A DNA stretch of 64,000 nucleotides, from NCBI RefSeq assembly GCF_900141755.1, contig NZ_LT670844.1, forward strand, positions 7,846,000-7,909,999, written 5' to 3'. The notes beneath the pieces were generated by a model. The model was not told the DNA's origin, made no database searches, and saw only the letters and a list, made by a program, of their open reading frames with translations. Within the stretch, counting starts at the first letter, position 1. Every line of letters begins with the position of its first letter. Positions 32,046 through 46,200 of the stretch are shown piece after piece. Both the position numbers and the translations under genes were made by a program. Source of the DNA: Bradyrhizobium lablabi (lineage in GTDB: Bacteria; Pseudomonadota; Alphaproteobacteria; Rhizobiales; Xanthobacteraceae).

Positions 32046-32061
32046 TCTGGCGGAAGGGGTG
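32046..32061. repeat. left attachment site (attL) of the element
   Basis: TCTGGCGGAAGGGGTG is identical to 46185-46200, which spans the CCA end and acceptor stem of tRNA-Ser. The flanking bases differ on both sides, so the identity block is exactly 16 bp and defines the crossover region. Confidence 0.85.
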
Positions 32062-32369
32062 TCCTCCGCATATAATTGATATAATTCGGCTATTTTGGAT
32101 TTTGTGAAGCCTACCCACGAGTTACCCCACGCTCTCGCCCGCGCATGGCGCCGGTTTACGTCGCCCGATGCCGTCAGGAGCGGGTACGCACCGCGATTTT
32201 GGTGCTTACCGCGAAAAAATATTTATATGACAATTCAAAAAGATATGGTCATGACTTCGAAGATTAGGTTAGTTCGGGATTGTCTTTTGTAGCCCACTGA
32301 TGTACATCCACACCCGCCTTGGAGGGTTCGATTCGTTCGTCTTGAGATCATCTCCAAGGAATCACGCCC
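32062..32369. other. left-end non-coding region of the element
   Basis: About 300 bp, AT-richer than its surroundings (a TATAATTGATATAATT stretch near 32070). It carries two CCCACG sites (32114-32119 and 32126-32131). The same hexamer recurs near the right end, so these may be integrase arm sites. The promoter for the replication genes should also lie here. No gene is supportable. Confidence 0.5.
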
Positions 32370-32585
32370 ATGCATATCGCCGATCCTGGTGCTGCCCCTG
32401 GCCGAAAGGCCTTTTCGGTCGACCAGTTCTGTTCAGATCACGGCATTTCGCGCGCGACGTTCTACAATCTCCGACAACGCGGCAAGGGGCCCACGGAAAT
32501 GAAAGTCGGGACTCGCACGCTCATCAGCGTTGAAGCCGCGGCGGAATGGCGCCGCCGGATGGAAACGGAAACTTCGGCGGCCTGA
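32370..32585 (+). CDS. AlpA-like helix-turn-helix regulator/excisionase
   Basis: 71 aa. The centre is a winged-helix/MerR-type turn (FSVDQFCSDHGISRATFYNL) followed by GPTEMKVGTRTLISVEAAAEW, the wing-plus-helix ending seen in AlpA and helix_turn_helix_17 proteins. Such proteins act as excisionases or as activators of integrase and replication genes in satellites of the P4 kind. It is the first gene of the leftward replication block. The next gene begins directly after the stop. Confidence 0.75.
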   Translation: MHIADPGAAPGRKAFSVDQFCSDHGISRATFYNLRQRGKGPTEMKVGTRTLISVEAAAEWRRRMETETSAA

Positions 32586-32942
32586 TTGCGCGGCAAAAGG
32601 AAAAGCGGCCCAACGGTGTGGGCCGCTCCTCCGGTATCTGCAGAGCTTGGCAGCCCGCATAATACCGAAGTTCCCAACCGGCGCAAACCCCATAGACCAA
32701 ATTTGTATCCGGAAGACTCGCGCCCCGACGCCAACGGCGAGGATGACTTGGCATTCTTCCGGGCGCGGCCGCATGTGCGAACGCGTATCAGAGCAGCTTT
32801 CCCAGGCGAATTTTCCAGAAAGATTCTGAAGCAGGGTCGCGGCCGATCCGCGGTGGTGGTGGTCGCGATAGCGCGTGACCGCGCTGGCAACCCTACAACA
32901 CGGGCGCGCGGCGTCCTCTTCGTCGACGAGGGGCGCGCATGA
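32586..32942 (+). CDS. hypothetical protein of the replication block
   Basis: Up to 118 aa if it starts at the TTG directly after the AlpA-like stop; a later start is possible since the first 45 residues are Pro/Arg/Asn-rich and unlike a folded domain. The credible part is DDLAFFRARPHVRTRIRAAF plus a GRGRSAVVVVAIARDRAGNP strand region, a small basic domain. The stop overlaps the ssb start as ATGA, which supports coding and coupled translation. I do not recognise the family. Confidence 0.5.
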   Translation: MRGKRKSGPTVWAAPPVSAELGSPHNTEVPNRRKPHRPNLYPEDSRPDANGEDDLAFFRARPHVRTRIRAAFPGEFSRKILKQGRGRSAVVVVAIARDRAGNPTTRARGVLFVDEGRA

Positions 32943-33391
32943 CCGCATTTGCATTGATCAGCGGCGTCATCTTTCGCGCACCGATGCAGAAGACGGCGAA
33001 GAGCGGGAAGCTCTTCACGACCTGCACAGTGAAGGCCGGGGCGGACGACAACGGCGGCGATTTTTGGAACGTCTTGAGTTTTTCCGAAAGCGGACAGTTC
33101 GAGCTGTTGCGGCTCGAGGTTGGCGACGCCGTTTCGGTGCGCGGCAAACTGAAGGTCGAAACCTACGCCGCGAACGACGGGACAACGAAGATCAGCAGGA
33201 CGATCTTCGCGGATGCTGCATTGGGGCTGCGTCCCGCGCCTCGCGAGAAAAAGCAGAAGGCGCCTCCGGCGGGCAGCAAAGCTGCGGACGCGCTTGCAAA
33301 ACAATCGATCTTGCCCGACGCGACGCCAGAGATTGCAGCAGGGGGGCCAGCGTTTTTTAACGACGACATACCTTTTGAGGCAGTGCGATGA
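32939..33391 (+). CDS. ssb: single-stranded DNA-binding protein (OB-fold), phage type
   Basis: 150 aa. OB-fold strands are visible (FALISGVIFRAPMQKTAKSG, LFTTCTVKAG, DFWNVLSFSE, VSVRGKLKVETY) and the tail ends in acidic FFNDDIPFEAV, the SSB-type tip that recruits partner proteins (canonical DDDIPF). A Lys/Ala-rich linker joins the two. It should coat single strands during replication of the element. Its start and stop overlap both neighbours by 4 bp. Confidence 0.85.
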   Translation: MTAFALISGVIFRAPMQKTAKSGKLFTTCTVKAGADDNGGDFWNVLSFSESGQFELLRLEVGDAVSVRGKLKVETYAANDGTTKISRTIFADAALGLRPAPREKKQKAPPAGSKAADALAKQSILPDATPEIAAGGPAFFNDDIPFEAVR

Positions 33392-33621
33392 GCAGCGCAG
33401 CCCGAAAGATCGATCATCATCAAAGCGCAAAGCCCTCGCCGATCGAGGTGTTCCGCGAGCGCGCCAGGGCGCGCGCGATGCTCGTCGCAAATGGCCTGAT
33501 GGACTTGCAAACCGCGGTCGACGGTATGCAGGAGACCGCCGGAGCTCAAGGGCTTGTCGCAAAGTACGGCCAGGACGAAATTCAACAGATCCTCAGCGAA
33601 GCATTCGCGAGGTGGCGATGA
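33388..33621 (+). CDS. small hypothetical protein of the replication block
   Basis: 77 aa, helical, with PIEVFRERARARAMLVANGL and a C-terminal QDEIQQILSEAFARWR. It overlaps ssb by 4 bp (ATGA) and the helicase gene by 4 bp, so it is translated as part of one unit. No family recognised; an accessory replication factor is the contextual guess. Confidence 0.65.
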   Translation: MSSAARKIDHHQSAKPSPIEVFRERARARAMLVANGLMDLQTAVDGMQETAGAQGLVAKYGQDEIQQILSEAFARWR

Positions 33622-35018
33622 TGGACCAGCTCTCCCCGCCGGTCGATCGCCTTGCCTATATCGGCCGCGATGTTTCGCTCGCCCAGCCTGGCGAAAAGCT
33701 CTCCGTATTTGTGGACCGCGCCAACGCCGTCGGCGGTTTGGTCCGCGACGGGTTCCTCAGCGCGACAGCCGTGAGTGAAAAGCTTTGGCAAACGGCCCGG
33801 GCTCATAATCTCGTTGGGTCGCCAGGCAGCGAACTGGAAGAACACATCACCAATGTGATCGAAGGCGCGGTCGCATTGGCCGACGAGGACGAGCCGCCAA
33901 TGCCGGCTGGACCTGATGATTACGGCGGGCACAGCGCGTCCACGGCGCCGAGCGATCAATCACCACTCGCGCTCGTCACCCCACAGCAGTGGAAAGGCGT
34001 CGAGCTCGAGCCCATGCGCTGGCTCGCGACACATCGCGTCCCGGCCGATGACGTCACCATCCTTTCCGGTGATGGAGGCCTCGGCAAGACGACCGTCGCG
34101 CTGCAACTCGGCGTTTCCGTCGCGCGCAATCTTGGCGACTGGCTCGGAACGACAACCTTGTCGGGCCCCGTCATTTTCTTCAGCGCCGAGGAGCCGGAAA
34201 GCGAAATGCGCCGGCGCCTCGATCGCGTCGCTCGAAAGCGCGGGATCGAGCCCGAACAGATCGAGCATCTCTATTTTCACTTCGCGGAACCCGACAAGGC
34301 CTTGCTGGGCATCTCTACACCCGCCGGCACGATCGCCCCGACGGCAACGTTCCAGGCTCTTGCCAGATCGGTGACGGATGTCAGGCCGGCGCTGCTGATC
34401 GTCGATAGCGTCGCCGCGGTCTTCGGCGGTAACCAGAACGACCGGGTCCAAGCCCGAACATTCGTGAGCATGTTTCGCCGCCTGGCGCGAGAGGCGGGAT
34501 GCGCCATCGTGCTGCTCGACCATCCGTCGCTGAGCGGCATGAACAGCGGCACCGGCCGCGGCGGCAACATGGATTGGAGCAACGTCGTCCGGTCCCGCCT
34601 GTATCTGCGGACGGTGGAGGAGGAAGAGGCTGCCTTCCGCGAGCTCGAAGTCGTCAAGAGCAATTATGGTCCCGCCGGCGAGAAGGTCAGGCTCCGTTGG
34701 GAGGATGGATCGTTCGTCCTCAAGACCGTTCAGTCAACGCCACAGCAGGCCGCCACTTTCGCAAAGATCGATGACCTGTTCCTGAAGCTGCTCGACAAGC
34801 GGACCGCTCAGGGCCGCCGGGTCTATCCGACCAAGGGTTCCGGATACGCGCCGAGTGTCTTTGCGATCGACCCGGACGCCGCCGGCATCACCCCCAAGGC
34901 CCTCGCAACCTCCATGGAGAGGCTCTTCAGCGAGCGCAAAATCGTCACCATCGAGGAGGGACCGCCATCGAAAAGAGTAACCCGCATCGCCCGCGCCGAG
35001 GTGTCCAAGGATGGCTAA
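33618..35018 (+). CDS. RepA-like AAA/RecA-fold helicase
   Basis: 466 aa from the ATG at 33618 (ATGATGG overlap with the preceding stop); the frame upstream to 33213 lies in ssb. The N-terminal 120 residues have no recognised fold. The RecA-like core has Walker A GDGGLGKT (151-158), VIFFSAEEPESEMRRRL, and Walker B LLIVDS (259-264), the pattern of the AAA_25/RSF1010 RepA helicases. The C-terminal part (about 370-466) looks like a winged helix. It probably loads on or unwinds the element's own origin; iteron-like repeats start 6 bp after the stop. Confidence 0.85.
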   Translation: MMDQLSPPVDRLAYIGRDVSLAQPGEKLSVFVDRANAVGGLVRDGFLSATAVSEKLWQTARAHNLVGSPGSELEEHITNVIEGAVALADEDEPPMPAGPDDYGGHSASTAPSDQSPLALVTPQQWKGVELEPMRWLATHRVPADDVTILSGDGGLGKTTVALQLGVSVARNLGDWLGTTTLSGPVIFFSAEEPESEMRRRLDRVARKRGIEPEQIEHLYFHFAEPDKALLGISTPAGTIAPTATFQALARSVTDVRPALLIVDSVAAVFGGNQNDRVQARTFVSMFRRLAREAGCAIVLLDHPSLSGMNSGTGRGGNMDWSNVVRSRLYLRTVEEEEAAFRELEVVKSNYGPAGEKVRLRWEDGSFVLKTVQSTPQQAATFAKIDDLFLKLLDKRTAQGRRVYPTKGSGYAPSVFAIDPDAAGITPKALATSMERLFSERKIVTIEEGPPSKRVTRIARAEVSKDG

Positions 35019-35024
35019 AGCACC

Positions 35025-35159
35025 CTTCGATCATCCTTCGATCATCAAAATTTGGCTTCGATCATCCTTCTTTCACCTATTCGAACACCCCTTATATCAT
35101 CTTCGATCATGCTTCGATCACCCTTCCTACTCACCCCCCATACCCCCGGGTGATCGAAG
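35025..35159. repeat. iteron-like repeats, candidate replication origin
   Basis: CTTCGATCA occurs five times directly (35025, 35036, 35056, 35101, 35112) and once inverted as TGATCGAAG (35151-35159). Copy-to-copy steps are 11, 20, 45 and 11 bp, near multiples of a helical turn. The short AT-rich stretch 35045-35055 lies among them. Position directly after a RepA-like helicase gene and before a DNA-binding protein gene fits an origin or a partition/regulatory site. A small frame starting at 35011 reads through the repeats (FDHPS motifs) and I do not call it. Confidence 0.6.
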
Positions 35160-35228
35160 GTGCCGATCCCTGGGCCTGACGGCCGGTCCGGACACATCGA
35201 TCCAAGCAAGCGGAGGCGTCGAATTGGG

Positions 35229-35519
35229 ATGACTTCCCTTGGAGAGCCGCTTGACGCAAAAACCGATGCCGAGAAAAAAATAGCGCCGCGCGACGAGCCG
35301 GCCTTGCCGGCGATCGACTGCGACGTGCTCTTCGGCCTGGGCGCGATAGCGCGGTGGCTTGGCATCACCGTTGGCCAGGCAAAAGCGCTTGTCGACGATG
35401 GCACCGTTCCGACCTTCAAACCGCCAGGCCGCTCGGCGCGCTGCGCGTTGAAGAGCGCGATCAATGAGGCGTTTGCGGAATATGCTCGCCGATCGGCGGC
35501 GCGAAAAAGCGCCGCTTGA
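35229..35519 (+). CDS. helix-turn-helix DNA-binding protein
   Basis: 96 aa from the ATG at 35229; a GTG at 35160 is an alternative but would begin at the inverted repeat. The C-terminal half (LFGLGAIARWLGITVGQAKA followed by DDGTVPTFKPPGRSARCALK) is an AlpA/excisionase-like fold with a helix-turn-helix and wing. It follows the iteron-like repeats directly, making it a candidate iteron-binding initiator (as RepC is beside RepA in RSF1010) or a second excisionase. Confidence 0.6.
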   Translation: MTSLGEPLDAKTDAEKKIAPRDEPALPAIDCDVLFGLGAIARWLGITVGQAKALVDDGTVPTFKPPGRSARCALKSAINEAFAEYARRSAARKSAA

Positions 35520-35582: not shown

Positions 35583-36314
35583 ATGGCAGACGGCAAGTGG
35601 ATTTCGTACCTCAGGGTCTCAACCGATCGGCAGGGCAAAAGCGGCCTTGGCCTCGAAGCGCAGCGCGCGGCTGTGGCCGATTATCTCAACGGCGGCCAGT
35701 GGAAACTGATCAAGGAATTTGTCGAGGTGGAAAGCGGAAAGCGGGCCGATCGGCCACAGCTCGAGGCTGCACTGGCTGCCTGCCGGCTGCACGGCGCAAA
35801 GCTCGTCATTGCCAAGCTTGATCGCCTATCGCGCGATGCTCACTTCCTACTCGGATTGGACAAGGCCGGCGTCGATTTCGTTGCGGCCGATATGCCGAAT
35901 GCCAACCGGCTCACGGTCGGAATCATGGCCATGGTGGCGGAGGAAGAGCGGCGCATGATCAGCGCCCGCACAAAGGCGGCATTGGCCGCCGCCAAGGCGC
36001 GCGGCACGAAGCTCGGCGGGCGTCGCCGGAAGGTGATCGGCATTAACGAACGTGGCCGGAAGATCTATGGCGAAGTGGTCCGCGGCTCTGCCGATGCCAT
36101 CGCCAAGGCTCAGGCGGCGATACAGCAGCGTGCGGACGCCAGGGCGGCCGACATCGGCCCGACCGTGAGAGCGTTGCAGGCAGCCGGGGCAGCGAGCCTG
36201 CGTGCCATCGCAGCGGGGCTCAATGCTCAAGGCATCCCGACGGCGCGCGGGCAGGGCACATGGTCCGCCAACCAGGTCGCGCGCGTCCTCGAGCGGCTGC
36301 AGGAGACCGCATGA
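35583..36314 (+). CDS. serine recombinase (resolvase/invertase family)
   Basis: 243 aa. The catalytic domain begins WISYLRVSTDRQGKSGLGLE with nucleophilic Ser13, followed by LVIAKLDRLSRD and the VGIMAMVAEEERRMISARTK E-helix region. The C-terminal part has a helix-turn-helix (GAASLRAIAAGLNAQGIPT then ARGQGTWSANQVARVLERLQ). It lacks the long zinc-ribbon C-terminus of large serine integrases, so it is more likely a resolvase or invertase that resolves dimers or flips a segment. It overlaps the next gene as ATGA. Confidence 0.87.
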   Translation: MADGKWISYLRVSTDRQGKSGLGLEAQRAAVADYLNGGQWKLIKEFVEVESGKRADRPQLEAALAACRLHGAKLVIAKLDRLSRDAHFLLGLDKAGVDFVAADMPNANRLTVGIMAMVAEEERRMISARTKAALAAAKARGTKLGGRRRKVIGINERGRKIYGEVVRGSADAIAKAQAAIQQRADARAADIGPTVRALQAAGAASLRAIAAGLNAQGIPTARGQGTWSANQVARVLERLQETA

Positions 36315-36688
36315 CGCCCCAAGAGCAGCAATGGCATTGGGGCGAGGGCACCAAGTACGCGATCGAAGGCATGAAGGCGCTCTTGCTGCTGAACGGCGGG
36401 GCCGCAATTGCGCTGTTGACGTTCATCGGAAGCCACGCGCCAAGCGGCTCCAACAAAACTCTAATCGCCCAGGCAATCGGAAATTCGCTGATTTCATTTG
36501 GTGTGGGAACGGTGAGCGCCGCGACGACGTTTGTTGCAGGCTACCTGACGCAGCTATATTACGGGAACGGAAGCACCAGCACGGCCATTCGATGGCACCA
36601 GCTAACCTATGTGCTGGTGATTGTCTGTGTGGCCGGTTTCATCGCCGGGGTTTATTTCGCCCGGAGTGCAGTGATCGCGAGCCTTTGA
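36311..36688 (+). CDS. small integral membrane protein
   Basis: 125 aa from the ATG at 36311, overlapping the recombinase stop by 4 bp. Three hydrophobic segments (around ALLLLNGGAAIALLTFIG, ISFGVGTVSAATTFVAGYL and LTYVLVIVCVAGFIAGVYFA). The N-terminus is Gln/Trp-rich and soluble. The size and topology would suit a holin, but no endolysin lies nearby, and a sensor or superinfection-exclusion role is equally possible. Confidence 0.7.
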   Translation: MTPQEQQWHWGEGTKYAIEGMKALLLLNGGAAIALLTFIGSHAPSGSNKTLIAQAIGNSLISFGVGTVSAATTFVAGYLTQLYYGNGSTSTAIRWHQLTYVLVIVCVAGFIAGVYFARSAVIASL

Positions 36689-36933
36689 CGTGGGCTGATT
36701 CGCCCGTGTGAAACCGCGACGGCGCGGCGAAGCGGCCTGAAACAGCCAGCGATCGGCACACGTCCGAAATTTATTTTCAGCTTCCCTCAACCCCGCTCAG
36801 CCTCGACCAACTCTGATTAGCCAATCGAGCCGCGCGCCAGCGGAGCGGTGCGCTCTTGCGTTAACACTTTGAGCCAGTTTCTTTGCTGAAACTCGGTTCA
36901 AACCTCGCGAAACCAGTGCGGCAACATCGAACA

Positions 36934-37293
36934 ATGAGCGCGCAACCTCAACCAGCAACCCGTAACCTCGGTGGACGGCCGCCCGGCATCAACCGGAGGC
37001 GCAAAGAGCTGGTCGATGGCTACGTCACAGCCCTCGGCGGGCCTGATCGCGTCACACCGCTGCAGATGGTGGAGATCGAGCGCGCCGCGGGGCTGACACT
37101 TCTCGCCCAGGAGATGCGCGCAAAGGCACTCCGGGGCGAGGATGTAGCGATTACCGACCTTACGCGCTTGGAGGGCACTCTCGACCGCGCCACCCGCCGC
37201 TTGGGCCTCAACATCGGCGCCGCCGCCCATCGCGAACCCGTCGCCGATCTGCAGTCATACCTGGCCAATAAGGCCGCCGGCGGTGGTCCATGA
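36934..37293 (+). CDS. terminase small-subunit-like protein
   Basis: 119 aa from the ATG at 36934. The N-terminus is basic (NLGGRPPGINRRRKELVDGY), with a following VTPLQMVEIERAAGLTLLAQ helix block. It sits directly before the large terminase-like gene with an ATGA overlap, the usual place of a small subunit. I know small proteins with GRPPG-type starts before terminases in rhizobial prophages, but the assignment is from position more than from fold. Confidence 0.55.
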   Translation: MSAQPQPATRNLGGRPPGINRRRKELVDGYVTALGGPDRVTPLQMVEIERAAGLTLLAQEMRAKALRGEDVAITDLTRLEGTLDRATRRLGLNIGAAAHREPVADLQSYLANKAAGGGP

Positions 37294-38777
37294 CGATCAC
37301 CCTCGCTGCAGCCATGCGCGACGTGAACTTGCTCGGGGCGCCATTTCAGGCGCCTTCCTTTTGGACGTGGCATACGGTCGCGAAGGTGATCAGCGGCGAA
37401 CCGCTTGACGAGCGAGAGGCCGCGCTATTCCGCGAATGCACCGGGCGAACGGAGCTCCCGAAGGGGCCGGTCAGCGATTTGACGCTGCTCGGCGGCCGGC
37501 GCACCGGCAAAGACCGGTTCATGTCCGCAACGGCGATTTTCCGCGCGGCATTGGCGGCGAAGTGGCAGGAGATCATGAGCGCGGGCGAAATGGCGACCGT
37601 GATCCTGCTCGGCGCCGACAAAAAACAGGCGAGGATCCTGCGGCGGTACTGCCAAGGCCTCCTCGAGGCTCCGATGATCAAGGCCTTGGTCTCGCGCGAC
37701 ACGGATGAGCAGATTGAATTTAAGAACGGCGCCGCCCTTGAGATCACGACAAACGACGCTGCACTTGTGCGCGGCCGAAGCGCGATCGCCGTGCTGGGTA
37801 CAGAGGTTTGTTTTTGGCAGACGGACGCCGCGTCCTCCTCGAGCGACGAGGAGGTTGTCGCCGCAGCCGAGCCCGGCATGGCCATGATCCCCGATGGCGG
37901 ATTGATGATTATGGCTTCCTCCGTCCACCGCAAGAAGGGCTACATGTACCGGCGGTGGAAAGAACTTCATGGTAACAACGAAGCCGAAGCCATCTGCTGG
38001 CTGGCACCAAGCCGCACGATGAATCCCGCCCTTCCTGAGAAGGTTGTGGCGAAGGCGATGAGCAAAGACCCCCAGCGGGCGGGAGCGGAATTCGGCTCCC
38101 AATGGCGCGACGACGTTTCCGATTTCATACCGCGTGAAGTCGTCGAGGCCGCGACAGACTTCGGTGTTCGAGAGCGAGCACCATTGCCTGACATGGACTA
38201 TGTTGCCTTCACGGACGCCGCCGGCGGTACCGGAAAGGACGCTTTCAGCCTCGCCATCGCCCATCGTGAGCGGGACGGCACAGCCGTCCTTGACTTCCTC
38301 CGCGAGCGCAAGCCTCGCTTCATCCCTGCCGCGGTCGTCAAGGAATACGCCGCGATTTTGAAGCTCTACCGCATCACCTCGATCCGGGGTGATCGATACA
38401 GCGCCGGCTGGAACGCCGACGAATGGGCGCGCGCCGGCATCAAGTATGAAGCGAGCGAACTTACAAAGTCGGAGCTCTATCTCGCGGCGCTGCCGATGCT
38501 GCTTTCCGGCCAGGTCCGCCTTCTGGACAATCAAACTCTCCGCGATCAGTTCGTCGGCCTTGAGCGCCGCGTGCACTCTACCGGCCGCGAAAGCGTAGAC
38601 GATAACGGCTCAGCATCCGCGAATGATGATTCCGCCAATGCCTGCGCTGGCGCGATCGTTCAGATATCCAGCGCTGCGGCGCCCCTCATCATCACTTCCG
38701 AATTCGCCGCGGAATTCGCGGCGCTGACGCGCAACATGAACTCACGTTCCAACCTCAACGCAATGAAAGGGCACTAA
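37290..38777 (+). CDS. terminase large-subunit-like protein
   Basis: 495 aa. N-terminal ATPase: Walker A-like GGRRTGKD (68-75), where the usual Ser/Thr after GK is Asp, and a strand with Glu172 (VLGTEVCFW) at the catalytic-Glu position. C-terminal RNase-H-like nuclease: FTDAAGGTGKDAFS (Asp309, Asp317) and GDRYSAGW (Asp368). Both domains of a DNA-packaging motor are thus present. It would package the element into capsids, which must come from a helper since none is encoded here. The altered Walker A leaves activity uncertain. Confidence 0.75.
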   Translation: MTITLAAAMRDVNLLGAPFQAPSFWTWHTVAKVISGEPLDEREAALFRECTGRTELPKGPVSDLTLLGGRRTGKDRFMSATAIFRAALAAKWQEIMSAGEMATVILLGADKKQARILRRYCQGLLEAPMIKALVSRDTDEQIEFKNGAALEITTNDAALVRGRSAIAVLGTEVCFWQTDAASSSSDEEVVAAAEPGMAMIPDGGLMIMASSVHRKKGYMYRRWKELHGNNEAEAICWLAPSRTMNPALPEKVVAKAMSKDPQRAGAEFGSQWRDDVSDFIPREVVEAATDFGVRERAPLPDMDYVAFTDAAGGTGKDAFSLAIAHRERDGTAVLDFLRERKPRFIPAAVVKEYAAILKLYRITSIRGDRYSAGWNADEWARAGIKYEASELTKSELYLAALPMLLSGQVRLLDNQTLRDQFVGLERRVHSTGRESVDDNGSASANDDSANACAGAIVQISSAAAPLIITSEFAAEFAALTRNMNSRSNLNAMKGH

Positions 38778-38779
38778 CA

Positions 38780-39136
38780 ATGTCGACATACGATCACGAA
38801 GGCCGCCGAAACGAAGACCGCGAAGGCCGCCGCAACTCCGCCAAGGATAACGAAGGCGGTTCGGGCCTCAAGGAGGTGATGGCACTCCTCATGGAAAAGC
38901 TCAGTGATGAAGAATTCAACGAATTCATGCAGAGGTTCGGCGGATATTTTGGTGCAAGCAAGGGTGCCTTGGGCGCCGACGATCCCGCCCCGTTCAGGGG
39001 CATGCAGCCCGGCGGCAAACGATTTGGCGAGGACGCGATGCGGGCAGCGATCGCCGACGCGCGGTCGACGTCTTACTCGAAATTCGAGGAACACCGGAAG
39101 AGCCTCGGGCTTCGCCGGATCCGCGTGCTTGGCTAA
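38780..39136 (+). CDS. hypothetical protein, possibly structural or regulatory accessory
   Basis: 118 aa. The N-terminus carries a short imperfect repeat (HEGRRNEDREGRRNSAKD). A helical middle (KEVMALLMEKLSDEEFNEFM) and a disordered C-terminus rich in Asp/Gly follow. It starts 2 bp after the terminase stop. No homologous family comes to mind. Confidence 0.6.
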   Translation: MSTYDHEGRRNEDREGRRNSAKDNEGGSGLKEVMALLMEKLSDEEFNEFMQRFGGYFGASKGALGADDPAPFRGMQPGGKRFGEDAMRAAIADARSTSYSKFEEHRKSLGLRRIRVLG

Positions 39137-40130: not shown

Positions 40131-40316
40131 ATGCGAATCTCAGTCGCCTGCTCAATCGCTATCGTCGCGTCGCTTCTGCAGTTTGCGCCGTGCATCGCCG
40201 CTGAACCTTGCGCGATCGGCGTCGCCGCGGTCGGCGCATGCCAGATTGGGCAGCATCCGAAGTCGGAGCGTCGCGCTGTTCATCCGCGCCATCGAGCGAT
40301 GGAGAAGCGAAAGTGA
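40131..40316 (+). CDS. short secreted peptide, 61 aa
   Basis: Starts with AAGGAAACC before the ATG and carries a signal peptide (MRISVACSIAIVASLLQFAP then CIAAEPC). Three cysteines lie in the first 40 residues and the tail is basic. It ends in a GTGA overlap with the next gene, so the two are translated together. No homologue known to me. Confidence 0.55.
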   Translation: MRISVACSIAIVASLLQFAPCIAAEPCAIGVAAVGACQIGQHPKSERRAVHPRHRAMEKRK

Positions 40317-41440
40317 AAAAACATCTCGCAATCTCGCTCGCGGCCGCGCTATGCGCGACACCGGCGCTCGCTCAGACGTCGCCGAACCTGACATTCGGCC
40401 AGGTCCTCACCCCCGCGCAGTGGAATTCGATTCTGGCCGGAAAACAGGACGTCCTCAGTTACAACCCGTTGAACGTCGCCGGCGGCGTGATGCTCGGTCG
40501 GCTGGTGACGGTGGCCCCGCCTTTCGGAACGACGGCTGGATTTAATCTTGCGCCGGGGACGACGCCGCCAAGCCCCGTCAATGGCGACATGTGGGTGACC
40601 GCGGCCGGCATCTTTGCTCAGGTCAACGGCGTGACGGTCGGGCCGCTCGGCGGCGCCTCGTCGGCCAGCTTTGCGGCAACGCAGCCACTAGCTGTTACGT
40701 TCCCGGGCGGCGTGACGACCTACGCGCTCAATTTCAATTCGTCGCTGTTGAAGGATGGCAGCAATAATCTCGGGATCAATCTCGCCAATCCGAACACCTG
40801 GACGGCGACGCAGACCTTTCCTGCCGCCAGCATTACGAACAGCGAGCTTGCTAATTCGTCGATCACCATCGGCAGCACCAACGTTGCTCTTGGCGGCACG
40901 GCGGCAACGATCGCCGGGCTGACGCTGACTGCACCGAACCTCGGCGCTGCGACCGCGACCACGATCAACAAGCTGACGATCACGCCACCGGCTACCGGAT
41001 CGACACTGACGATCGCCGACGGAAAGACATATGTCGTCAACAATTCGATCACGCTTGCTGGCACCGACAACACGACATGGACCGGCGCCGGCGTAAATAT
41101 GACGCTGGCCGCACTCAACATCGCCGATCAAGTATTGACCGGCGGAGCGAACGTCACGGCGCAATCGCAATCGACCGGCAACATCACGGTGGACTGCGGC
41201 TCACGGCCGATCCAGACCATCACCAACAACGGCGCCTACACGATCACGGCACCATCCAACGATGGTTTCTGCCTGCTCAAGGTCACGAACGGTGCTTCGG
41301 CTGGCGCCACAACATTCACGGGCTTTTCGGTCGGCACCAACACCGGGGACGGCCTGACCACCACGAACGGCAACAAGTTCGTTATCTCGATCATCCGTGC
41401 CGGTGGTGATTCAACATATTCTGTGAAGGCCCTCCAATGA
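40313..41440 (+). CDS. signal-peptide-bearing tail-fibre-like protein
   Basis: 375 aa from the GTG at 40313, with GGAGAAG before it. The first 21 residues are a signal peptide (KKHLAISLAAALCATPALAQ). The body is Thr/Ala/Asn-rich beta repeats of phage tail-fibre type: LTFGQVLTPAQWNSILAGKQ is like the receptor-binding fibre starts in rhizobial prophages, and NPNTWTATQTFPAASITNSE and LTITPPATGSTLTIADGKTY are fibre-like modules. A tail fibre normally needs no signal peptide, so this one should be secreted by the host cell rather than assembled on a virion. It overlaps both neighbours. Confidence 0.65.
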   Translation: MKKHLAISLAAALCATPALAQTSPNLTFGQVLTPAQWNSILAGKQDVLSYNPLNVAGGVMLGRLVTVAPPFGTTAGFNLAPGTTPPSPVNGDMWVTAAGIFAQVNGVTVGPLGGASSASFAATQPLAVTFPGGVTTYALNFNSSLLKDGSNNLGINLANPNTWTATQTFPAASITNSELANSSITIGSTNVALGGTAATIAGLTLTAPNLGAATATTINKLTITPPATGSTLTIADGKTYVVNNSITLAGTDNTTWTGAGVNMTLAALNIADQVLTGGANVTAQSQSTGNITVDCGSRPIQTITNNGAYTITAPSNDGFCLLKVTNGASAGATTFTGFSVGTNTGDGLTTTNGNKFVISIIRAGGDSTYSVKALQ

Positions 41441-42300
41441 GGCCAGCGATCATCCTGCGGAGTGCGGTTGCCGCCTGCCTGCTGCTTGGCGTCGTAGCCG
41501 CAAGGGCTCAAATCTTTGCCCCGCCCTATGTGAATTTTGCATCGGGAACGCCGCTGTCTTGCTCTGGCGGCACGCACACAGTAGTTAGCGGGCACGATGT
41601 CTATACATTCACGGCCAGCGGCACACTGACGTGCACGGGCAGCGGAACAGCGAACTATCTCGTCGTGGCGGGCGGGGGCGGGGGCGACATCAGCGGGGGT
41701 GGCGCTGGCGGTCTGTTGACTGGAGCCACTTTGCTATCCGCAGGCAGCTACGTGATTACGGTTGGCAACGGTGGATTGGGGGCGACGGCATCAAATAATG
41801 CTACGAGCGGAGGTAACTCATCACTCGGCGCGCTCGTCACTGCGGTAGGAGGTGGGCGCGGTATTAGTTCTATCGCATCTGTTAGCGGTGGTTCTGGCGG
41901 TGGTGGCTATAGTAGCGGTGGCGGTGCGGGCGCGGCAGGAACGGCGGGGCAGGGTAATGCTGGAGGCAACAGCGGCGCTTCACAAAATGCAGGCGGTGGC
42001 GGCGGCTGTGGGGCGGTCGGTAGTAATGGTGGCCCCGGAACAACAGGGACGGGCGGCAATGGTGGTGCGGGATGCTCATCATCGATTAGTGGTTCCGCCG
42101 TTACCTATGCAGGTGGTGGCGGTGGTGCTGCCAACACAACACCGGGCAGTGGCGGTTCTGGTGGGGGTGGTGCGGCTGGCGCGTCGTCTGGAACATCTGG
42201 CACGGCGAACACGGGTGGCGGCGGCGGCGGCATTTTTACAGCCTACGCGCCGAGCGGCGGCAATGGCGGCTCCGGCATCATCATCGCCAGGGTGAACTAA
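41437..42300 (+). CDS. secreted glycine-rich tail-tip-like protein
   Basis: 287 aa, starting in an ATGA overlap with the fibre-like gene. A signal peptide (MRPAIILRSAVAACLLLGVV then AARAQ) precedes a short domain with GTHTVVSGHDVYTFTASGTL. From residue 75 on it is Gly/Ser/Ala repeats (LVVAGGGGGDISGGGAGGLL; GNGGAGCSSSISG; GNGGSGIIIARVN). This is the polyglycine-II fold of phage fibre tips such as T4-type gp38-like adhesins and the PF21722-type glycine-rich domain. The export signal is the odd part. The base sequence is highly repetitive. Confidence 0.65.
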   Translation: MRPAIILRSAVAACLLLGVVAARAQIFAPPYVNFASGTPLSCSGGTHTVVSGHDVYTFTASGTLTCTGSGTANYLVVAGGGGGDISGGGAGGLLTGATLLSAGSYVITVGNGGLGATASNNATSGGNSSLGALVTAVGGGRGISSIASVSGGSGGGGYSSGGGAGAAGTAGQGNAGGNSGASQNAGGGGGCGAVGSNGGPGTTGTGGNGGAGCSSSISGSAVTYAGGGGGAANTTPGSGGSGGGGAAGASSGTSGTANTGGGGGGIFTAYAPSGGNGGSGIIIARVN

Positions 42301-42657: not shown

Positions 42658-43176
42658 CTATTTGCCCTCGACCATTCGAACGACGCAGATTAGCTCCTGT
42701 TCCGCCGACAATCGGTTGTGCGGATAGTCGGAAGCGCAGAAAACTGGCGACACCCTTGCTTTGACGAGTTCGCGGATTCGCGCGCAATCCGTCTCCGAAA
42801 ATCCTTTGCAATAGTCAGGTGTCGGCGGCGTCCGCTGCGTTCCGCATGCAATGTCGGCGAGCGCGCCGGCTGCCGACCGCGGCGGCGCGTAGAGAACCGG
42901 CCCGAGACCGCCAGTCTGGTCGCGATAGTGGCCGCGACAGTCGAACCATAGGACGCGGAGGTTTTCGGGATTGTATCCGGCGCCCTCGACAAAGTAGACA
43001 AAGGCGTCAGCAGTGCCGTTACTGTAGTGATTGATCGAATTTAGGTCGATCTTGTAGACCGCACCATTATCGGCCTCGACACTTCTCCAATTCCATTGAT
43101 GGTCCAGCGCCGACGCAGTTGTGACCGTCATAAGAAGTGCCACCGCGGCCACCAACCAGCCAATAAATATTTTCAT
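42658..43176 (-). CDS. exported hypothetical protein
   Basis: 172 aa from the ATG at 43176, where a signal peptide begins (MKIFIGWLVAAVALLMTVTT then ASA). The mature part has WNWRSVEADNGAVYKIDLNS, a GAGYNPENLRVLWFDCRGHY block and six cysteines, suggesting disulfide stability in the periplasm. It is transcribed against the main gene direction of the element, as cargo genes often are. No family recognised. Confidence 0.65.
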   Translation of the reverse strand: MKIFIGWLVAAVALLMTVTTASALDHQWNWRSVEADNGAVYKIDLNSINHYSNGTADAFVYFVEGAGYNPENLRVLWFDCRGHYRDQTGGLGPVLYAPPRSAAGALADIACGTQRTPPTPDYCKGFSETDCARIRELVKARVSPVFCASDYPHNRLSAEQELICVVRMVEGK

Positions 43177-43273
43177 GAAATGCCCCAAAATAATCAGGGC
43201 ATGATTCCGCAACCGGGGCGGGAGGGCAAGTATGCAGTGATGATACGCCGTCTGGCCTACCGACCGTCCTCGG

Positions 43274-43462
43274 TCATTTGCCTTTTACCTTCAGCCCGAT
43301 CTCGACCAGGCGGCGGATTGCTTCCGGGCGGCCGGGCAAATCGGATTGTTGCCGGCGCCAATCGTCCAGTTGTTTCGCCATATGCGGTTGCACACGGACC
43401 AGGACGGGCTCTCCGGTGGCCGCGGCTCGTTTCTTTGGCGATTTCGTGATTGATTTGCTCAT
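43274..43462 (-). CDS. ribbon-helix-helix DNA-binding protein
   Basis: 62 aa. A basic tail (SKSITKSPKKRAAATG) is followed by a strand (PVLVRVQPHMAKQLDDWRR) and two helices (LPGRPEAIRRLVEIGLKVKG), a clear RHH fold. Proteins of this kind are repressors, often of toxin-antitoxin or mobile-element control; no toxin gene is adjacent. Confidence 0.75.
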   Translation of the reverse strand: MSKSITKSPKKRAAATGEPVLVRVQPHMAKQLDDWRRQQSDLPGRPEAIRRLVEIGLKVKGK

Positions 43463-43543: not shown

Positions 43544-43774
43544 ATGCCCAAGGCTACAGGCGTGTTTATCACGCAACGGACAGGCACGTCCGAATTTCTG
43601 ATCACCGTTAACCGTCTGAGAATATCGCAGCTGCTACGCGATCCCTTCGTCGCGGCCGCTTTCAAGGCCACGGAAGAAGACGACGGGCTTGCGCCGGCCC
43701 TGGTCGAGGTCGACCGACCCAAGACCCTCGACGGCGGCGCCGCCGAGCACATTCTCGCGATGGCGGAGGTTTGA
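43544..43774 (+). CDS. small hypothetical protein
   Basis: 76 aa, beginning MPKATGVFITQRTGTSEFLI, with an acidic C-terminal half. It ends 3 bp before the next gene and is probably co-transcribed with it. Nothing in it is recognisable. Confidence 0.5.
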   Translation: MPKATGVFITQRTGTSEFLITVNRLRISQLLRDPFVAAAFKATEEDDGLAPALVEVDRPKTLDGGAAEHILAMAEV

Positions 43775-43777
43775 GTT

Positions 43778-44767
43778 ATGAAGCGCCTTTCACAGCCCGC
43801 CAGCAAGCCGCTGGTCGACGTTTCGTCGCCGCTCCCTGAACAGCATGCCGGCGCCCTCAAAGCGCTGTCGCGCCTGCGCCGCGAGGCCTGTAGGCAAATC
43901 GCGAGGCTCGGTCGGTCGTCATCTTGTCCACAGCTTTCCACCGGACAAGATGAACCGGTCCAGCAATCAGACGTTTCTCCGAGCACTGACAAACACACCC
44001 GGAGAAATGTCATGGGCATAATGGGTTCGGCGGCGGCCACAACGGCCGGCGCCACTTTCTTGGCGTCGCAGTCTGCCGCAGCGTTTGCAGTCCAGAACTC
44101 GGGGCGCGCAGAGATCGACAAGCTTTATGAGGAACGTACGGCGCTCGCTGCTCGATCGCGCGAGTTGCATGCGCAATACGTCGCTGCCGACGCGAGTCTT
44201 CCCTGGTGGGCCCGGGCCGGTCACGAGTATCTACGCGGTGACGGCACATGGACAGGCGGCATTGTCGGCTGGCCGGCGATCGATGATGACCACAAGCCGG
44301 CGCATTACATCGTCCAGCTCCTGAAGCGGCCTTCGCCGTACACCATCCGCAGGGATTTCGAGCGCGATCTTCGATTTTTTGGCGAAAAACAACGGCCGGA
44401 AATTCGTGCGAAATATCGCCGGCGGATGCGCGAGCTGGTCGCGCGGCTTCGGTGTCAACGCGAGGAAGAGCGAAAGGCTGGGCTTCCCGAACTGGAAGCC
44501 CAGATCGATGCGATCAGTGATCGGATATTTGATCTCAATGACAGGATCGAAAACCTCGATGTGTCAGCTGCAGACATGCCGCAGAAGGTTGCGGCCGTGC
44601 ATATGATCACGCAATATCGGCATTTCCTGGCACGGCAACCCATCGGCGACATCGCCGTGCTTATGGTGCTGCGGCCGATGCTGACGGGGTTGATCCGCGA
44701 GCATGCCGATTTCGCCGCCAAGGATTGGGAAGCGCCGATCTGCAGCATGCCCTTCTACTCGTCCTAA
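43778..44767 (+). CDS. hypothetical protein with internal Tat-like signal
   Basis: 329 aa. The first 70 residues are low-complexity and hydrophilic. Then comes THTRRNVMGIMGS-like sequence (HTRRNVMGIMGSAAATTAGA) and a hydrophobic Ala/Thr stretch ending AAAFAVQN, resembling a twin-arginine signal that starts inside the protein. The rest is helical and charged, with ERDLRFFGEKQRPEIRAKYR and a predicted coiled coil (ELEAQIDAISDRIFDLNDRI). A shorter start near the signal would explain it, but no good ribosome site is seen there. Last gene before the integrase, convergent with it. Function unknown. Confidence 0.6.
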   Translation: MKRLSQPASKPLVDVSSPLPEQHAGALKALSRLRREACRQIARLGRSSSCPQLSTGQDEPVQQSDVSPSTDKHTRRNVMGIMGSAAATTAGATFLASQSAAAFAVQNSGRAEIDKLYEERTALAARSRELHAQYVAADASLPWWARAGHEYLRGDGTWTGGIVGWPAIDDDHKPAHYIVQLLKRPSPYTIRRDFERDLRFFGEKQRPEIRAKYRRRMRELVARLRCQREEERKAGLPELEAQIDAISDRIFDLNDRIENLDVSAADMPQKVAAVHMITQYRHFLARQPIGDIAVLMVLRPMLTGLIREHADFAAKDWEAPICSMPFYSS

Positions 44768-44789
44768 GATCCAGCACCAGCGCTGTACG

Positions 44790-44818: not shown

Positions 44819-44897
44819 CGCGCGCGTAGGGCGGTGACAAAACCCCGCCGGTTCACGCCGGCGGCAAGCCGCTAGGGATTGTGGCGCGCGCCGGGGC

Positions 44898-46028
44898 TCA
44901 AACCGCACCGTTGCAATAGTCCGCCCAAGTCATCATCAGTTCGCGCCGCTTTGCCAGCGCAGTGCGGCGCCGATAGGCGATCTCGGTTTCGTCGCCCACG
45001 ACGTGCGCAATCGCGGCTTCCGCCGTTTCCCATGCGGCCTCGGTTTCGTCACCCGCGTAATCCCGAAACGTCGACCGCATGCCATGCGTCGTTGCCGGTG
45101 TATCGGTGTGGCGCGCAATGCAATTCGCCAGGGTGACGTCAGATACCGGCCGGAACGGCAATTGCGCCAGTGCGAGCGGCGTGAGCGGCACAAAGTGCGG
45201 TCGGTCGCCCTTCATGCGGATCGCGGGGACAGTCCACAGATCGCCCTTCACTTCGGCGGTCGGATCCATTTCGTAGGCCTCGTTAAAGCGACAGGCGGTT
45301 AAAATAATCCACCGCAACATGCGCGCTGCGTTACTCGTGTCGCTGGCCAACGATTTCCAGAATTTCGGCATCTCCTCATAGGGCAGGGCAGGATGGTGCT
45401 TCACGTCCGATTTCTTGCGTCGGGCAAGCACCTGGTCGAGATGACCGCGCCAAAGCGCCGGATTTTCGCCAGTGCGGAGCTTTTCGGCCTTGGCGGAATT
45501 TAGAATTGCTTCGATGCGACCGCGGACACGCCGAGCCGTTTCTTTTTTCTTGGTCCAAATCGGCCGCAGCACTTTCAGAACAGCCTCCGTGTCGACGTCA
45601 GCGACCGGCAAATGGCCAATATGCGGATGGGCATAGTCGCGCAGACTATTGCGCCATTGCTGGCGATGTTTGTTGTTTTTCCAGCCGGCTTCGCGACCGG
45701 AAATGAATCCATCGGCATAGACCTTGAACGTGACGGAGCGGGAGGCCTCCACCTTGGCCTCGGCGCGCTTGGCATTGCGATCCTCGATAGGGTCTTTGCC
45801 GTCGCGTATCAGGGCGCGGGTGTCCTGCGCCGCGTCGCGCGCCTGCGCCAATGTCACGTCGTCAGCAGGCCCCAAGCCCATGTATCGCTCTTTGCCAGTG
45901 ACCGGCGACGTGAAGCGAAAAATCCAACTTCGGTTGCCGTTTTTGTCGACATCGAGCCGTAATCCGCCGCCGTCACTCAGCTTGTCACCGGGCTTCGAAT
46001 TCTTCACCTGAAATGCGGTCAATGCCAT
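44898..46028 (-). CDS. P4-type tyrosine integrase (DUF4102 N-terminus)
   Basis: 376 aa. The N-terminal arm-binding domain starts KLSDGGGLRLDVDKNGNRSW and continues to RYMGLGPADDVTLAQARDAA. A core-binding domain follows, then the catalytic domain with Arg in ILTACRFNEAYEM, His-x-x-Arg in THGMRSTFRDYAG, His in IAHVVGDETE and Tyr in IAYRRRTALAKRRELMMTWA. All five catalytic residues are present, so it should be active. It lies beside tRNA-Ser and reads away from it. It should recombine the 16-bp att core. Confidence 0.93.
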   Translation of the reverse strand: MALTAFQVKNSKPGDKLSDGGGLRLDVDKNGNRSWIFRFTSPVTGKERYMGLGPADDVTLAQARDAAQDTRALIRDGKDPIEDRNAKRAEAKVEASRSVTFKVYADGFISGREAGWKNNKHRQQWRNSLRDYAHPHIGHLPVADVDTEAVLKVLRPIWTKKKETARRVRGRIEAILNSAKAEKLRTGENPALWRGHLDQVLARRKKSDVKHHPALPYEEMPKFWKSLASDTSNAARMLRWIILTACRFNEAYEMDPTAEVKGDLWTVPAIRMKGDRPHFVPLTPLALAQLPFRPVSDVTLANCIARHTDTPATTHGMRSTFRDYAGDETEAAWETAEAAIAHVVGDETEIAYRRRTALAKRRELMMTWADYCNGAV

Positions 46029-46119
46029 TGAAGTGTCCGCCTAATCCCACGGGCCAACCCACGTCTGTAGCGTGGATGCTGGCACATTTCGGCGGACACC
46101 GGTAGACGCCGGAAGAAAT

Positions 46120-46143
46120 AAAGCCCCGGTTTTCCGAGGCTTT
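46120..46143 (-). terminator. hairpin-terminator downstream of tRNA-Ser
   Basis: AAAGCCCCGG (46120-46129) pairs with CCGAGGCTTT (46134-46143) over a TTTT loop with one mismatch. Read on the minus strand it follows the tRNA 3' end by about 45 bp and is succeeded by a T-rich stretch. It lies inside the element, so the element supplies a terminator for the tRNA. Confidence 0.5.
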
Positions 46144-46184
46144 AAAAACATCTATAGACGTGGGTGGATACGGGAGAACAATGT

Positions 46185-46200
46185 TCTGGCGGAAGGGGTG
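46185..46200. repeat. right attachment site (attR) inside tRNA-Ser
   Basis: Same 16 bases as 32046-32061. On the minus strand it covers the CACCCCTTCCGCCA 3' end of the tRNA plus two bases beyond, so integration restores a complete tRNA gene. Confidence 0.85.

What the first reader, a model, noticed from the sequence alone, without database searches (positions are those of the whole stretch)
32046..46200. Satellite-like element in tRNA-Ser: integrase, own replication, packaging, but no capsid genes
A 14.2-kb element is delimited to the base by a 16-bp direct repeat, one copy being the tRNA-Ser 3' end. It carries AlpA-like regulation, SSB plus RepA-like helicase, iteron-like repeats, a terminase pair and an integrase, yet I find no portal, capsid, tail-tube or lysis genes. 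That gene set is the signature of phage-inducible satellites (PICI, P4-like). I know of no described satellite family with this gene order in Bradyrhizobium. A decayed prophage is the main alternative.
Basis: partly seen in the sequence, partly recalled or inferred. Interest (0 to 1): 0.82.

Follow-up and report, generated by a model that had tools for sequence, protein, structure and literature searches.

The report
Capsid-less phage satellite with own motor
A 14-kb mobile DNA element in a soil bacterium carries the genes to copy itself and the motor that loads DNA into virus shells, but no gene for a shell was found, and related elements occur in about one in eight genomes of its genus, so it probably travels in shells stolen from other viruses.

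Summary
The element is real: 14,139 bp from 32046 to the tRNA-Ser 3' end, flanked by an exact 16-bp repeat that occurs only twice in the window. It encodes a tyrosine integrase, an excisionase-like HTH protein, SSB, a RepA-like AAA_25 helicase followed by six iterons, a serine recombinase, a probable TerS, TerL, a conserved coiled-coil protein and two proteins read as tail-fibre-like. No portal, major capsid or lysis gene was recognised.

It is not a one-off. TerL relatives occur in 33 of 265 genomes of the genus, this one included. Of 46 other bacterial loci examined, 28 are bounded by tRNA repeats, 10.2-22.6 kb. For one relative the empty site was found in two genomes. TerL is under purifying selection in 16 related pairs (dN/dS 0.045-0.164). 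No HK97-type (Pfam) portal or capsid match lies in a delimited element.

Best reading: an integrative phage satellite that brings its own replication and packaging motor and borrows head, tail and lysis. By gene content it is neither P4, PICI, cf-PICI nor PICMI. Helper use and packaging are inferred, not shown. An empty site for this very element was not found.

The parts
32046..32061 (.). attL: 16-bp direct repeat copy, remnant of the tRNA-Ser 3' end
   Evidence: exact copy of 46185-46200
32370..32585 (+). HTH protein, probable excisionase/transcription regulator
   Evidence: phrog_66 1.5e-5, phrog_575 Cox-like 1.2e-4; Pfam AlpA only E 0.1
32939..33391 (+). single-strand DNA-binding protein (SSB)
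   Evidence: PF00436 1.6e-6, 28.5 bits vs cut-off 26; phrog_44 1.3e-8
33388..33621 (+). 77-aa ORF overlapping SSB and helicase genes, unknown
   Evidence: no convincing hit
33618..35018 (+). RepA-like AAA_25 replicative helicase/ATPase
   Evidence: PF13481 5.7e-33; phage WO RepA 32% over half the query
35025..35159 (.). iteron cluster: CTTCGATCA x5 direct and x1 inverted, probable origin
   Evidence: in the 500 bp behind the gene one 8-mer occurs 6 times (0 of 500 shuffles), one 9-mer 6 times (3 of 500)
35160..35519 (+). 119-aa ORF, unknown
   Evidence: no convincing hit
35583..36314 (+). serine recombinase (resolvase/invertase type)
   Evidence: PF00239 9.5e-30, phrog_125 5.2e-31; its similarity cluster spans 18 of the loci compared
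36260..36688 (+). 142-aa ORF, unknown
   Evidence: no convincing hit
36934..37293 (+). probable small terminase subunit (TerS); ORF opens at 36883
   Evidence: overlaps TerL start by 4 nt; similarity cluster of 27 loci, this one included; helical model (pLDDT 81), HK97 TerS second by Z (8.4, 80 residues, 3.0 A) but Foldseek E > 1
37290..38777 (+). large terminase subunit (TerL)
   Evidence: phrog_2 1.1e-15; T4 gp17 by profile 3.2e-4; GRRxGK, E172, D309, D368, D446-D447 invariant in the 20 aligned sequences
38780..39136 (+). 118-aa ORF directly after TerL, unknown
   Evidence: no convincing hit
39190..39873 (+). 227-aa conserved coiled-coil protein
   Evidence: 25 proteins found, this one included; all-helical model, pLDDT 88; no significant fold match
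40208..41440 (+). tail-fibre-like protein, start uncertain (40313 used as start)
   Evidence: phrog_6002 virion structural 1.4e-9, best stretch only 58 residues; 311 homologues; 62.5% over about 50 aa to an S-WAM2 structural protein
41437..42300 (+). glycine-rich protein, read as tail-fibre-like
   Evidence: PF21722 Gly_rich_2 3.8e-16; phrog_2295, unknown function, 3.7e-38; no match in phage genomes
42377..42613 (+). small possible DNA-binding protein
   Evidence: phrog_949, unknown function, 4.5e-5; PSK_trans_fac 0.12, below cut-off
42658..43212 (-). 184-aa ORF, unknown
   Evidence: no hit
43274..43462 (-). small repressor-like protein
   Evidence: phrog_4738 transcriptional repressor 1e-5
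43544..43774 (+). 76-aa ORF, unknown
   Evidence: no hit
43778..44767 (+). 329-aa ORF, probable cargo
   Evidence: no convincing hit
44898..46028 (-). tyrosine integrase for tRNA-Ser
   Evidence: PF13356 1.9e-23, PF22022 4.3e-30 (the catalytic-domain family PF00589 is not listed); phrog_1 2.9e-35 over residues 1-373; 39-41% identical to integrases of relatives at tRNA-Ser
46185..46200 (.). attR: 16-bp repeat copy, the 3' end of tRNA-Ser
46187..46276 (-). tRNA-Ser(TGA), intact, integration target

Best explanation
An integrative phage satellite of a so far undescribed type ('own motor, no shell'). It sits in tRNA-Ser. When a helper phage grows in the cell, the integrase and the excisionase-like protein cut it out as a circle. 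SSB, the RepA-like helicase and the iterons let it replicate independently of the helper. Its own TerS marks its DNA, and its own TerL docks on the portal of helper proheads and pumps the DNA in, competing with the helper's terminase. Head, tail and lysis come from the helper; the two fibre-like proteins may be added to the particle. Shown: boundaries, gene content, conservation of the TerL catalytic residues, purifying selection on TerL in relatives (not testable for this element's own branch), recurrence as compact delimited elements, and an empty site for one relative. Inferred: induction, replication, docking on a foreign portal, the helper, and the role of the fibre-like genes.
For: Delimited to the base; 19 uninterrupted ORFs covering 86% of the element. 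TerL relatives in 33 of 265 genus genomes, 40 matches, this genome included. 28 of 46 other bacterial TerL loci bounded by tRNA repeats of 16-57 bp, 10.2-22.6 kb, median 12.65 kb with this element included. TerL dN/dS 0.045-0.164 in 16 pairs (15 of bacterial loci, one of small viral contigs); six pairs of phage contigs give 0.027-0.103, so the constraint is of the same order. A clade of 16 TerLs, 14 of them from delimited elements, has support 100/99 and no portal locus. None of 18 PF04860 and 21 PF05065 matches in 26 genomes lies in a delimited element. Empty site for L044's element contiguous in G489 (96%) and G143 (90%). The TerL family also occurs on five plasmid records of 9.7-58 kb, on the smallest as a fragment. 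Only 3 of 50,697 phage records match this TerL, all partial (44-56% of the query) and below 27% identity. A prophage-like region with HK97-type portal and capsid is present in the same genome.
Against: No particle, circle or induction data. No empty site for this very element: its left flank is not syntenic in the relatives looked at. No capsid-size or interference gene recognised. This element's TerL lies on a separate branch (window + L030 + L122, 100/100), not in the clade of 16; L030's locus is cut by a contig end and L122 is an 8.5-kb contig, so the nearest relatives are not delimited, and no dN/dS was obtained for this branch. Related TerLs also occur in true phages, beside portals, in viral contigs. 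One small viral contig with this TerL family (L132, 15.4 kb) encodes a portal. In G493 a portal/capsid cluster lies about 20 kb from the undelimited TerL locus L202, unresolved. A 312-aa ORF in the delimited element L051 matches head-protease families and, partially and weakly, the 'major head protein' family phrog_617 (5.6e-8), so that element may not be free of head genes.
Confidence: 0.7

Rival explanations
1. Decayed prophage: a temperate phage at tRNA-Ser lost its head, tail and lysis modules by deletion; what remains is no longer mobile.
For: Fibre-like genes at the end of a late-type gene block look like leftovers of a structural module. TerL relatives in viral contigs stand beside portals. 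The genome has another, complete-looking prophage. No empty site was found for this element.
Against: 19 uninterrupted ORFs, 86% coding, both att copies exact. The same compact architecture recurs in 28 tRNA-delimited relatives with TerL under purifying selection in the pairs that could be tested. No protein (E 1e-3) or DNA similarity to the resident prophage.
Confidence: 0.15
2. Integrative plasmid-like element that uses TerS/TerL for something other than packaging into phage heads, or carries them as passengers.
For: SSB, RepA-like helicase, iterons and a serine recombinase form a plasmid-like replicon; TerL relatives lie on plasmids, one with ParA and VapE, one (with a TerL fragment) with a DUF5906 gene. 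No virion has been shown.
Against: TerL keeps ATPase and nuclease residues and a TerS-like gene stays next to it in relatives, as expected of a packaging motor; fibre-like genes have no evident role in a plasmid.
Confidence: 0.08
3. A complete minute virus whose capsid and portal are too divergent to be recognised.
For: Several ORFs have no known family; PHROGs and Pfam miss highly divergent capsids.
Against: The conserved unknown after TerL models as a helical bundle, not an HK97 shell or portal; the only other ORFs over 300 aa without a function are the fibre-like one and a 329-aa ORF; no lysis gene was recognised.
Confidence: 0.07

Closest known systems
cf-PICI (capsid-forming PICI)
   Same: Integrative, about 14 kb on average (passage of PMC10803314), carries TerS and TerL and depends on a helper for the rest (passage of PMC10690885).
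   Different: cf-PICIs encode major capsid, protease, portal and connectors and borrow tails only; here no head gene was found, and fibre-like genes are present.
PICI (including SaPI)
   Same: Integrase, small regulator, own replication, TerS that redirects packaging.
   Different: PICIs bring TerS at most and use the helper's TerL (passage of PMC10690885); this element has TerL. Replication here is SSB plus a RepA-like helicase with iterons, no primase recognised.
P4-like satellites
   Same: tRNA integration, integrase with Arm-DNA-bind_3 domain, small regulator, about 10 kb (size, the rest recalled), no capsid.
   Different: No P4 alpha primase, Psu or Sid recognised; P4 is packaged by the helper's terminase (passage).
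PICMI of Vibrionaceae
   Same: No capsid-remodelling genes; own excision and replication.
   Different: Integrates next to fis, core of int, alpA and primase; the word terminase does not occur in the main text of PMC10803314 (find).
Satellite prophage AH14b of Pseudomonas (16.8 kb)
   Same: Small, own primase, borrowed capsid; inferred by its authors to be packaged as trimers in helper heads.
   Different: Its authors found no terminase gene in AH14b (passage of PMC4936722).
Wolbachia plasmid pWALBA1
   Same: Alphaproteobacterial plasmid with a TerL and a DnaB-like helicase.
   Different: It also has a portal and possibly a coat protein (passage of PMC9560607); not compared by sequence here.

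Membership tests
phage satellite (general) | integrated element of 7-20 kb between att repeats with integrase, regulatory and replication genes (definition in the abstract of PMC13376191, search listing) | tested here: met
   14,139 bp between exact repeats; integrase, regulator, SSB, RepA-like helicase
phage satellite (general) | lacks virion structural genes | tested here: inconclusive
   no portal or capsid hit in the 19 element ORFs scanned, but two tail-fibre-like genes are present
phage satellite (general) | transfer in particles of a helper phage | not testable with these tools
   needs induction and particle sequencing
P4-like satellites | P4 alpha-type primase-helicase | tested here: not met
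   replication gene is AAA_25; no primase domain in the Pfam scan, although the ATPase part also matches DNA polymerase/primase PHROG families; definition recalled
P4-like satellites | Psu/Sid/delta capsid and late-gene proteins | tested here: inconclusive
   no such hit in Pfam or PHROG scans, but short divergent proteins can be missed
PICI | TerS without TerL, helper TerL used | tested here: not met
   intact TerL present
cf-PICI | encodes major capsid, portal, protease and connectors | tested here: not met
   none found in the element; PF04860 and PF05065 match the genome only at C1:1.30 Mb
cf-PICI | TerS, TerL and HNH endonuclease | tested here: inconclusive
   TerL and probable TerS yes; no HNH hit in the element
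PICMI | integration next to fis with int, alpA, primase core | tested here: not met
   tRNA-Ser site, no primase domain in Pfam
TerS-TerL element family described here | tRNA att repeats enclosing integrase and a TerL of this family, no portal or capsid, under 25 kb | tested here: met
   window element; TerL enclosed in 28 of 46 relatives, no PF04860/PF05065 match inside them; an integrase similar to the collected ones was recognised in 22 cases
decayed prophage | pseudogenes, broken att or remnants of head/tail modules | tested here: inconclusive
   19 uninterrupted ORFs, exact att copies; but the two fibre-like genes could be remnants of a tail module

The most novel reading that the evidence does not exclude
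A widespread alphaproteobacterial satellite family lives by the reverse of the cf-PICI strategy: it brings the complete DNA-loading motor (TerS and TerL) and its own replicon but no shell, and docks this motor on foreign portals. Some relatives add single particle-shaping parts (prohead protease, tape measure, neck or fibre proteins), so each lineage would customise stolen particles: which DNA goes in, how large the head, how long the tail, which host is recognised.
Probability: 0.45. Interest if true: 0.82.

Novelty: new variant of a known kind. Interest (0 to 1): 0.64.

Why it matters
In the satellites described in the passages seen here, packaging is done either by the helper's motor (P4, PICI) or by the satellite's own motor with its own shell (cf-PICI). 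A family with a motor but no shell would show that the terminase-portal contact can be used across element lineages and would make its specificity testable. Nine paper searches listed no satellite family described for Bradyrhizobium. The TerL family is present in about one in eight species genomes of the genus (33 of 265), and some relatives carry defence-type domains such as SIR2-like and SMODS, so the elements may move phage resistance between soil bacteria.

Tried and rejected

Considered and dropped: gene transfer agent (element is excisable-looking and head and tail-tube genes were not found); ICE or mobilisable island (no relaxase in the scans); reading the element as AlpA-type P4/PICI (AlpA E 0.1 only).

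Limits of the counts. The 46 loci are 26 and 20, some with truncated or broken TerL (L052, L054, L055, L198); L020 and L023 lie on short contigs and were not fetched. 20-kb stretches cannot show elements over about 18 kb; 10 of the 21 undelimited loci were extended to 36-70 kb, which gave 3 more; 18 stay without a tRNA repeat. Three of the 28 elements (L048, L209, L211) were scanned for ORFs only in the part that lies in their 20-kb stretch. Of 113 unassigned ORFs of 200 aa or more, 112 were scanned; one that ran into an element's end was left out, and shorter ORFs were not scanned. The family scans list only 25 of 116 PHROG and 25 of 45 Pfam families, so single matches weaker than 2.8e-36 (PHROG) or 1.9e-13 (Pfam) are not seen there. 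Of portal and capsid folds only the Pfam families PF04860 and PF05065 were searched genome-wide. One search printed 22 pairs of similar length and score; 6 are phage contigs beside portals. The iteron-like enrichment behind the four other helicase genes holds for 8-mers (3-5 of 500 shuffles) but not for 7-mers in L126 (80 of 500) and L032 (45 of 500). Paper searches show capped lists (for example 12 of 86 papers).
Full report
What was checked. The window is C1:7846000-7909999 of a 7.91-Mb single-contig genome. The genus is very probably Bradyrhizobium: a same-genus genome, G169, has a 72,510-base contig with a TerL relative, and the protein database gives a TerL relative on a contig of that length as Bradyrhizobium sp.; this is an inference. 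The repeat TCTGGCGGAAGGGGTG lies at 32046-32061 and 46185-46200 and nowhere else in the window at up to 3 mismatches. The right copy is the 3' end of an intact tRNA-Ser(TGA) on the minus strand. The element is 14,139 bp; 19 ORFs that I chose cover 86% of it.

Gene content. From left to right on the plus strand: an HTH excisionase-like protein; SSB; a RepA-like AAA_25 helicase; an iteron cluster directly behind it; a serine recombinase; a probable TerS overlapping TerL by 4 nt; TerL; a 118-aa ORF; a 227-aa coiled-coil protein; two tail-fibre-like proteins (each begins with what looks by eye like a signal peptide); and small regulators and unknowns on both strands. The integrase is on the minus strand beside the tRNA. 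Pfam lists its arm-binding and central domains but not the catalytic family PF00589; PHROG 1 covers its whole length, and the sequence printed contains, by eye, the R, K, HxxR, H and Y residues expected of tyrosine recombinases (motifs recalled). CTTCGATCA occurs six times in 135 bp behind the helicase gene, five direct and one inverted. The 500 bp behind the gene are enriched for a repeated 8-mer here (0 of 500 shuffles) and in the four other loci with a related helicase (3-5 of 500 each); for 7-mers two of the four are not enriched (80 and 45 of 500). An iteron-like origin behind this helicase may be a shared feature.

Head genes. None of the 19 element proteins scanned with Pfam and PHROGs hits a portal or major capsid. 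The conserved protein behind TerL was modelled from 25 sequences (pLDDT 88) as a bundle of long helices without a significant structural match. It is not an HK97 shell protein; a scaffold or adaptor role is possible but not shown. The fibre-like reading rests on short or unspecific matches: 58 residues of a virion structural family and about 50 residues of an S-WAM2 structural protein for the first, a glycine-rich domain for the second.

TerL and its relatives. In 20 aligned sequences the Walker A motif (GRRxGK), E172 and the nuclease aspartates D309, D368 and D446-D447 are invariant (functional labels by analogy with other terminases, recalled). The profile reaches T4 gp17. In 50,697 phage records only three weak partial matches exist, whereas the protein database returned 788 relatives among the 7,991 scored candidates. 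In the genus, 33 of 265 genomes have a match at E 1e-60 or better, this genome included. In a sample of the order, 7 of 297 genomes match, this genome among them. In PLSDB five plasmid records match, among them a Komagataeibacter nataicola record whose feature table repeats after 15,212 bp in the 23 kb seen and holds ParA, VapE, a recombinase, a TerS-like gene and TerL, and a 9.7-kb Roseomonas plasmid whose match covers only 31% of the query.

A family of delimited elements. For 46 bacterial loci with this TerL, the window not counted, I looked for a tRNA part repeated on the other side of TerL. 25 of 46 have one in the first 20-kb stretches; 3 more appeared when 10 undelimited loci were extended. 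The repeats are 16-57 bp; most hold the 3' part of the tRNA, three (L032, L209, L211) the 5' part. The sizes are 10.2-16.9 kb with one of 22.6 kb; with the window element the median is 12.65 kb. Decoy comparisons reach 16 bp in 10 of 408. The tRNAs are His, Lys, Ser, Thr, Trp, Glu, Ala, Arg and Gln. For the element in L044 the joined flanks match contiguously over all 750 bases in G489 (96%) and G143 (90%), while in its own genome they are split by 12.2 kb, the repeat starts lying 12,282 bp apart: a true empty site. Four delimited relatives with 39-41% identical integrases all sit at tRNA-Ser with a 3'-terminal repeat (L046, L047, L204, L196), which independently supports the window's 16-bp att.

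No shell found in the family. In the 28 elements (three of them only in part) 379 ORFs were called, 173 of at least 200 aa; 60 of these are similar to the collected TerL (28), integrase (22), recombinase (4) or replication (6) proteins, and 112 of the other 113 were scanned. No portal or major capsid appears among the families listed, which go down to 2.8e-36 (PHROGs) and 1.9e-13 (Pfam) for single matches. Tape-measure, tail-collar and tail-fibre matches do appear. One ORF of L051 matches head-protease families and, partially, phrog_617 'major head protein' at 5.6e-8; I read it as a protease, but it is the nearest thing to a head gene in a delimited element. Genome-wide searches of the 26 genomes found 18 portal and 21 capsid matches of PF04860 and PF05065; by comparison of coordinates none lies in a delimited element. 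In G493 a portal/capsid cluster lies about 20 kb from an undelimited TerL locus (L202), which stays unresolved. In viral contigs, small elements with this TerL carry single virion genes: head protease, tape measure and neck protein (L129), baseplate hub and tape measure (L126), and in one case a portal (L132). Other contigs with this TerL family are phages with a portal behind TerL.

Selection and history. For 16 pairs of TerL genes from bacterial loci and small elements dN/dS is 0.045-0.164, and for 6 pairs of phage contigs 0.027-0.103 (own Nei-Gojobori script). So TerL in these elements is constrained much as in phages, which is hardly compatible with a family of dead remnants; the window's own branch had no close enough DNA to be tested. 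On the TerL tree (80 rows) a clade of 16, 14 of them from delimited elements, has support 100/99 and contains no portal locus. Delimited elements as a group need at least 10 changes, and portal loci at least 6, on starred branches. So capsid-less elements and phages have exchanged or lost these genes repeatedly. The window's TerL groups with L030 and an 8.5-kb viral contig (100/100) on a long branch outside the clade of 16.

Mechanism. The best-supported reading is a satellite that excises, replicates by itself and loads its DNA with its own TerS/TerL into helper proheads. Bradyrhizobium strains are known to release tailed phages with estimated genomes of 45-60 kb, two predicted to be headful packagers (passages of PMC10127595). 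A 14.1-kb element would fill such a head as three or four copies, as inferred for AH14b with three (PMC4936722) and shown for PICMI with eight (PMC10803314); for this element it is my inference. The own genome holds a prophage-like region at C1:1.29-1.33 Mb with HK97-type portal and capsid, whose other genes I assign by position only; it shares no detectable protein or DNA similarity with the element. It is a candidate helper, not a demonstrated one.

Comparison with known systems. P4 uses the helper's terminase, PICIs bring TerS at most, cf-PICIs bring TerS, TerL and the whole head (passages of PMC10690885), PICMIs sit at fis with int, alpA and primase (passages of PMC10803314), and no terminase was found in AH14b by its authors. 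The window element fits none. Nine searches of the paper library listed no description of a TerS-TerL, capsid-free satellite family or of satellites in Bradyrhizobium; the lists are capped, and subscription papers and preprints are largely not held, so this is not proof of novelty.

Verdict. The satellite reading is favoured at about 0.7, a decayed prophage at about 0.15. As a single element it is a good example of a new variant of a known kind; the family behind it is the more interesting finding.

Noticed in passing
window 46277-64000 and on across the contig origin to G000 C1:43.7 kb: tRNA-Ser is a two-sided hotspot: pieces of the tRNA 5' half recur at C1:39457-39495 and C1:43640-43723, and the chromosome conserved in several relatives begins at about C1:44.65 kb, so a second island of roughly 61 kb sits on the 5' side if the contig is circular. 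Similar 5'-half pieces lie 3-20 kb away in G031, G008, G034, G024, G001 and G032.
   Followed up: partly
window 46367-46912 (-): C-terminal half of a tyrosine integrase; a 410-aa relative (69%) stands at the same place in G031, so this is probably the decayed integrase of the 5'-side island.
   Followed up: partly
window 58076-58840 and 61908-62672: Two ORFs of 254 aa with the same first 60 residues in what looks by eye like a polysaccharide gene cluster (galE-like, glycosyltransferase-like and flippase-like ORFs): probably a recent duplication.
   Followed up: no
L129:13040-17980, L126:10178-13693: Small integrase-TerL elements in viral contigs carry single particle-shaping genes (head maturation protease, tape measure, neck, baseplate hub); this might allow a satellite to set head size or tail length of stolen particles.
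   Followed up: partly
L051:7688-8626: In a delimited 16.7-kb element, a 312-aa ORF matches head maturation protease families (phrog_9427 2.2e-10) and partially 'major head protein' phrog_617 (5.6e-8).
   Followed up: no
L132:10532-12016: A 15.4-kb viral contig with this TerL family encodes a portal protein (phrog_2662, 4e-69), perhaps an intermediate between capsid-less elements and cf-PICI-like ones.
   Followed up: no
L058 (NZ_CP134887.1): Komagataeibacter nataicola plasmid record of 30,453 bp repeats its gene table after 15,212 bp, so it looks like a tandem dimer of a plasmid with ParA, VapE, recombinase, TerS-like gene and TerL: a free-plasmid form of such an element, or an assembly artefact.
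   Followed up: partly
L031, L033, L034, L036, L039-L043, L046, L047, L053, L055: Three families found around TerL mostly in the clade-of-16 elements (304-399 aa before TerS, 105-219 aa and 272-369 aa after TerL) have no convincing Pfam or PHROG match among the representatives scanned; they are candidate replication and packaging or capsid-modifying proteins.
   Followed up: partly
28 delimited elements (A3): Defence-type domains as cargo in single elements: SIR2-like/STALD, SMODS, KAP NTPase, XamI restriction endonuclease, DNA methylase.
   Followed up: no
G000 C1:1292000-1331800 (L191, L192): A complete-looking prophage region in the same chromosome (HK97-type portal and capsid; other genes by position), a candidate helper.
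   Followed up: partly
L204:2698, 15175, 17908: Element at tRNA-Ser with two right-hand att copies 2.7 kb apart, suggesting a second small insertion in tandem.
   Followed up: no
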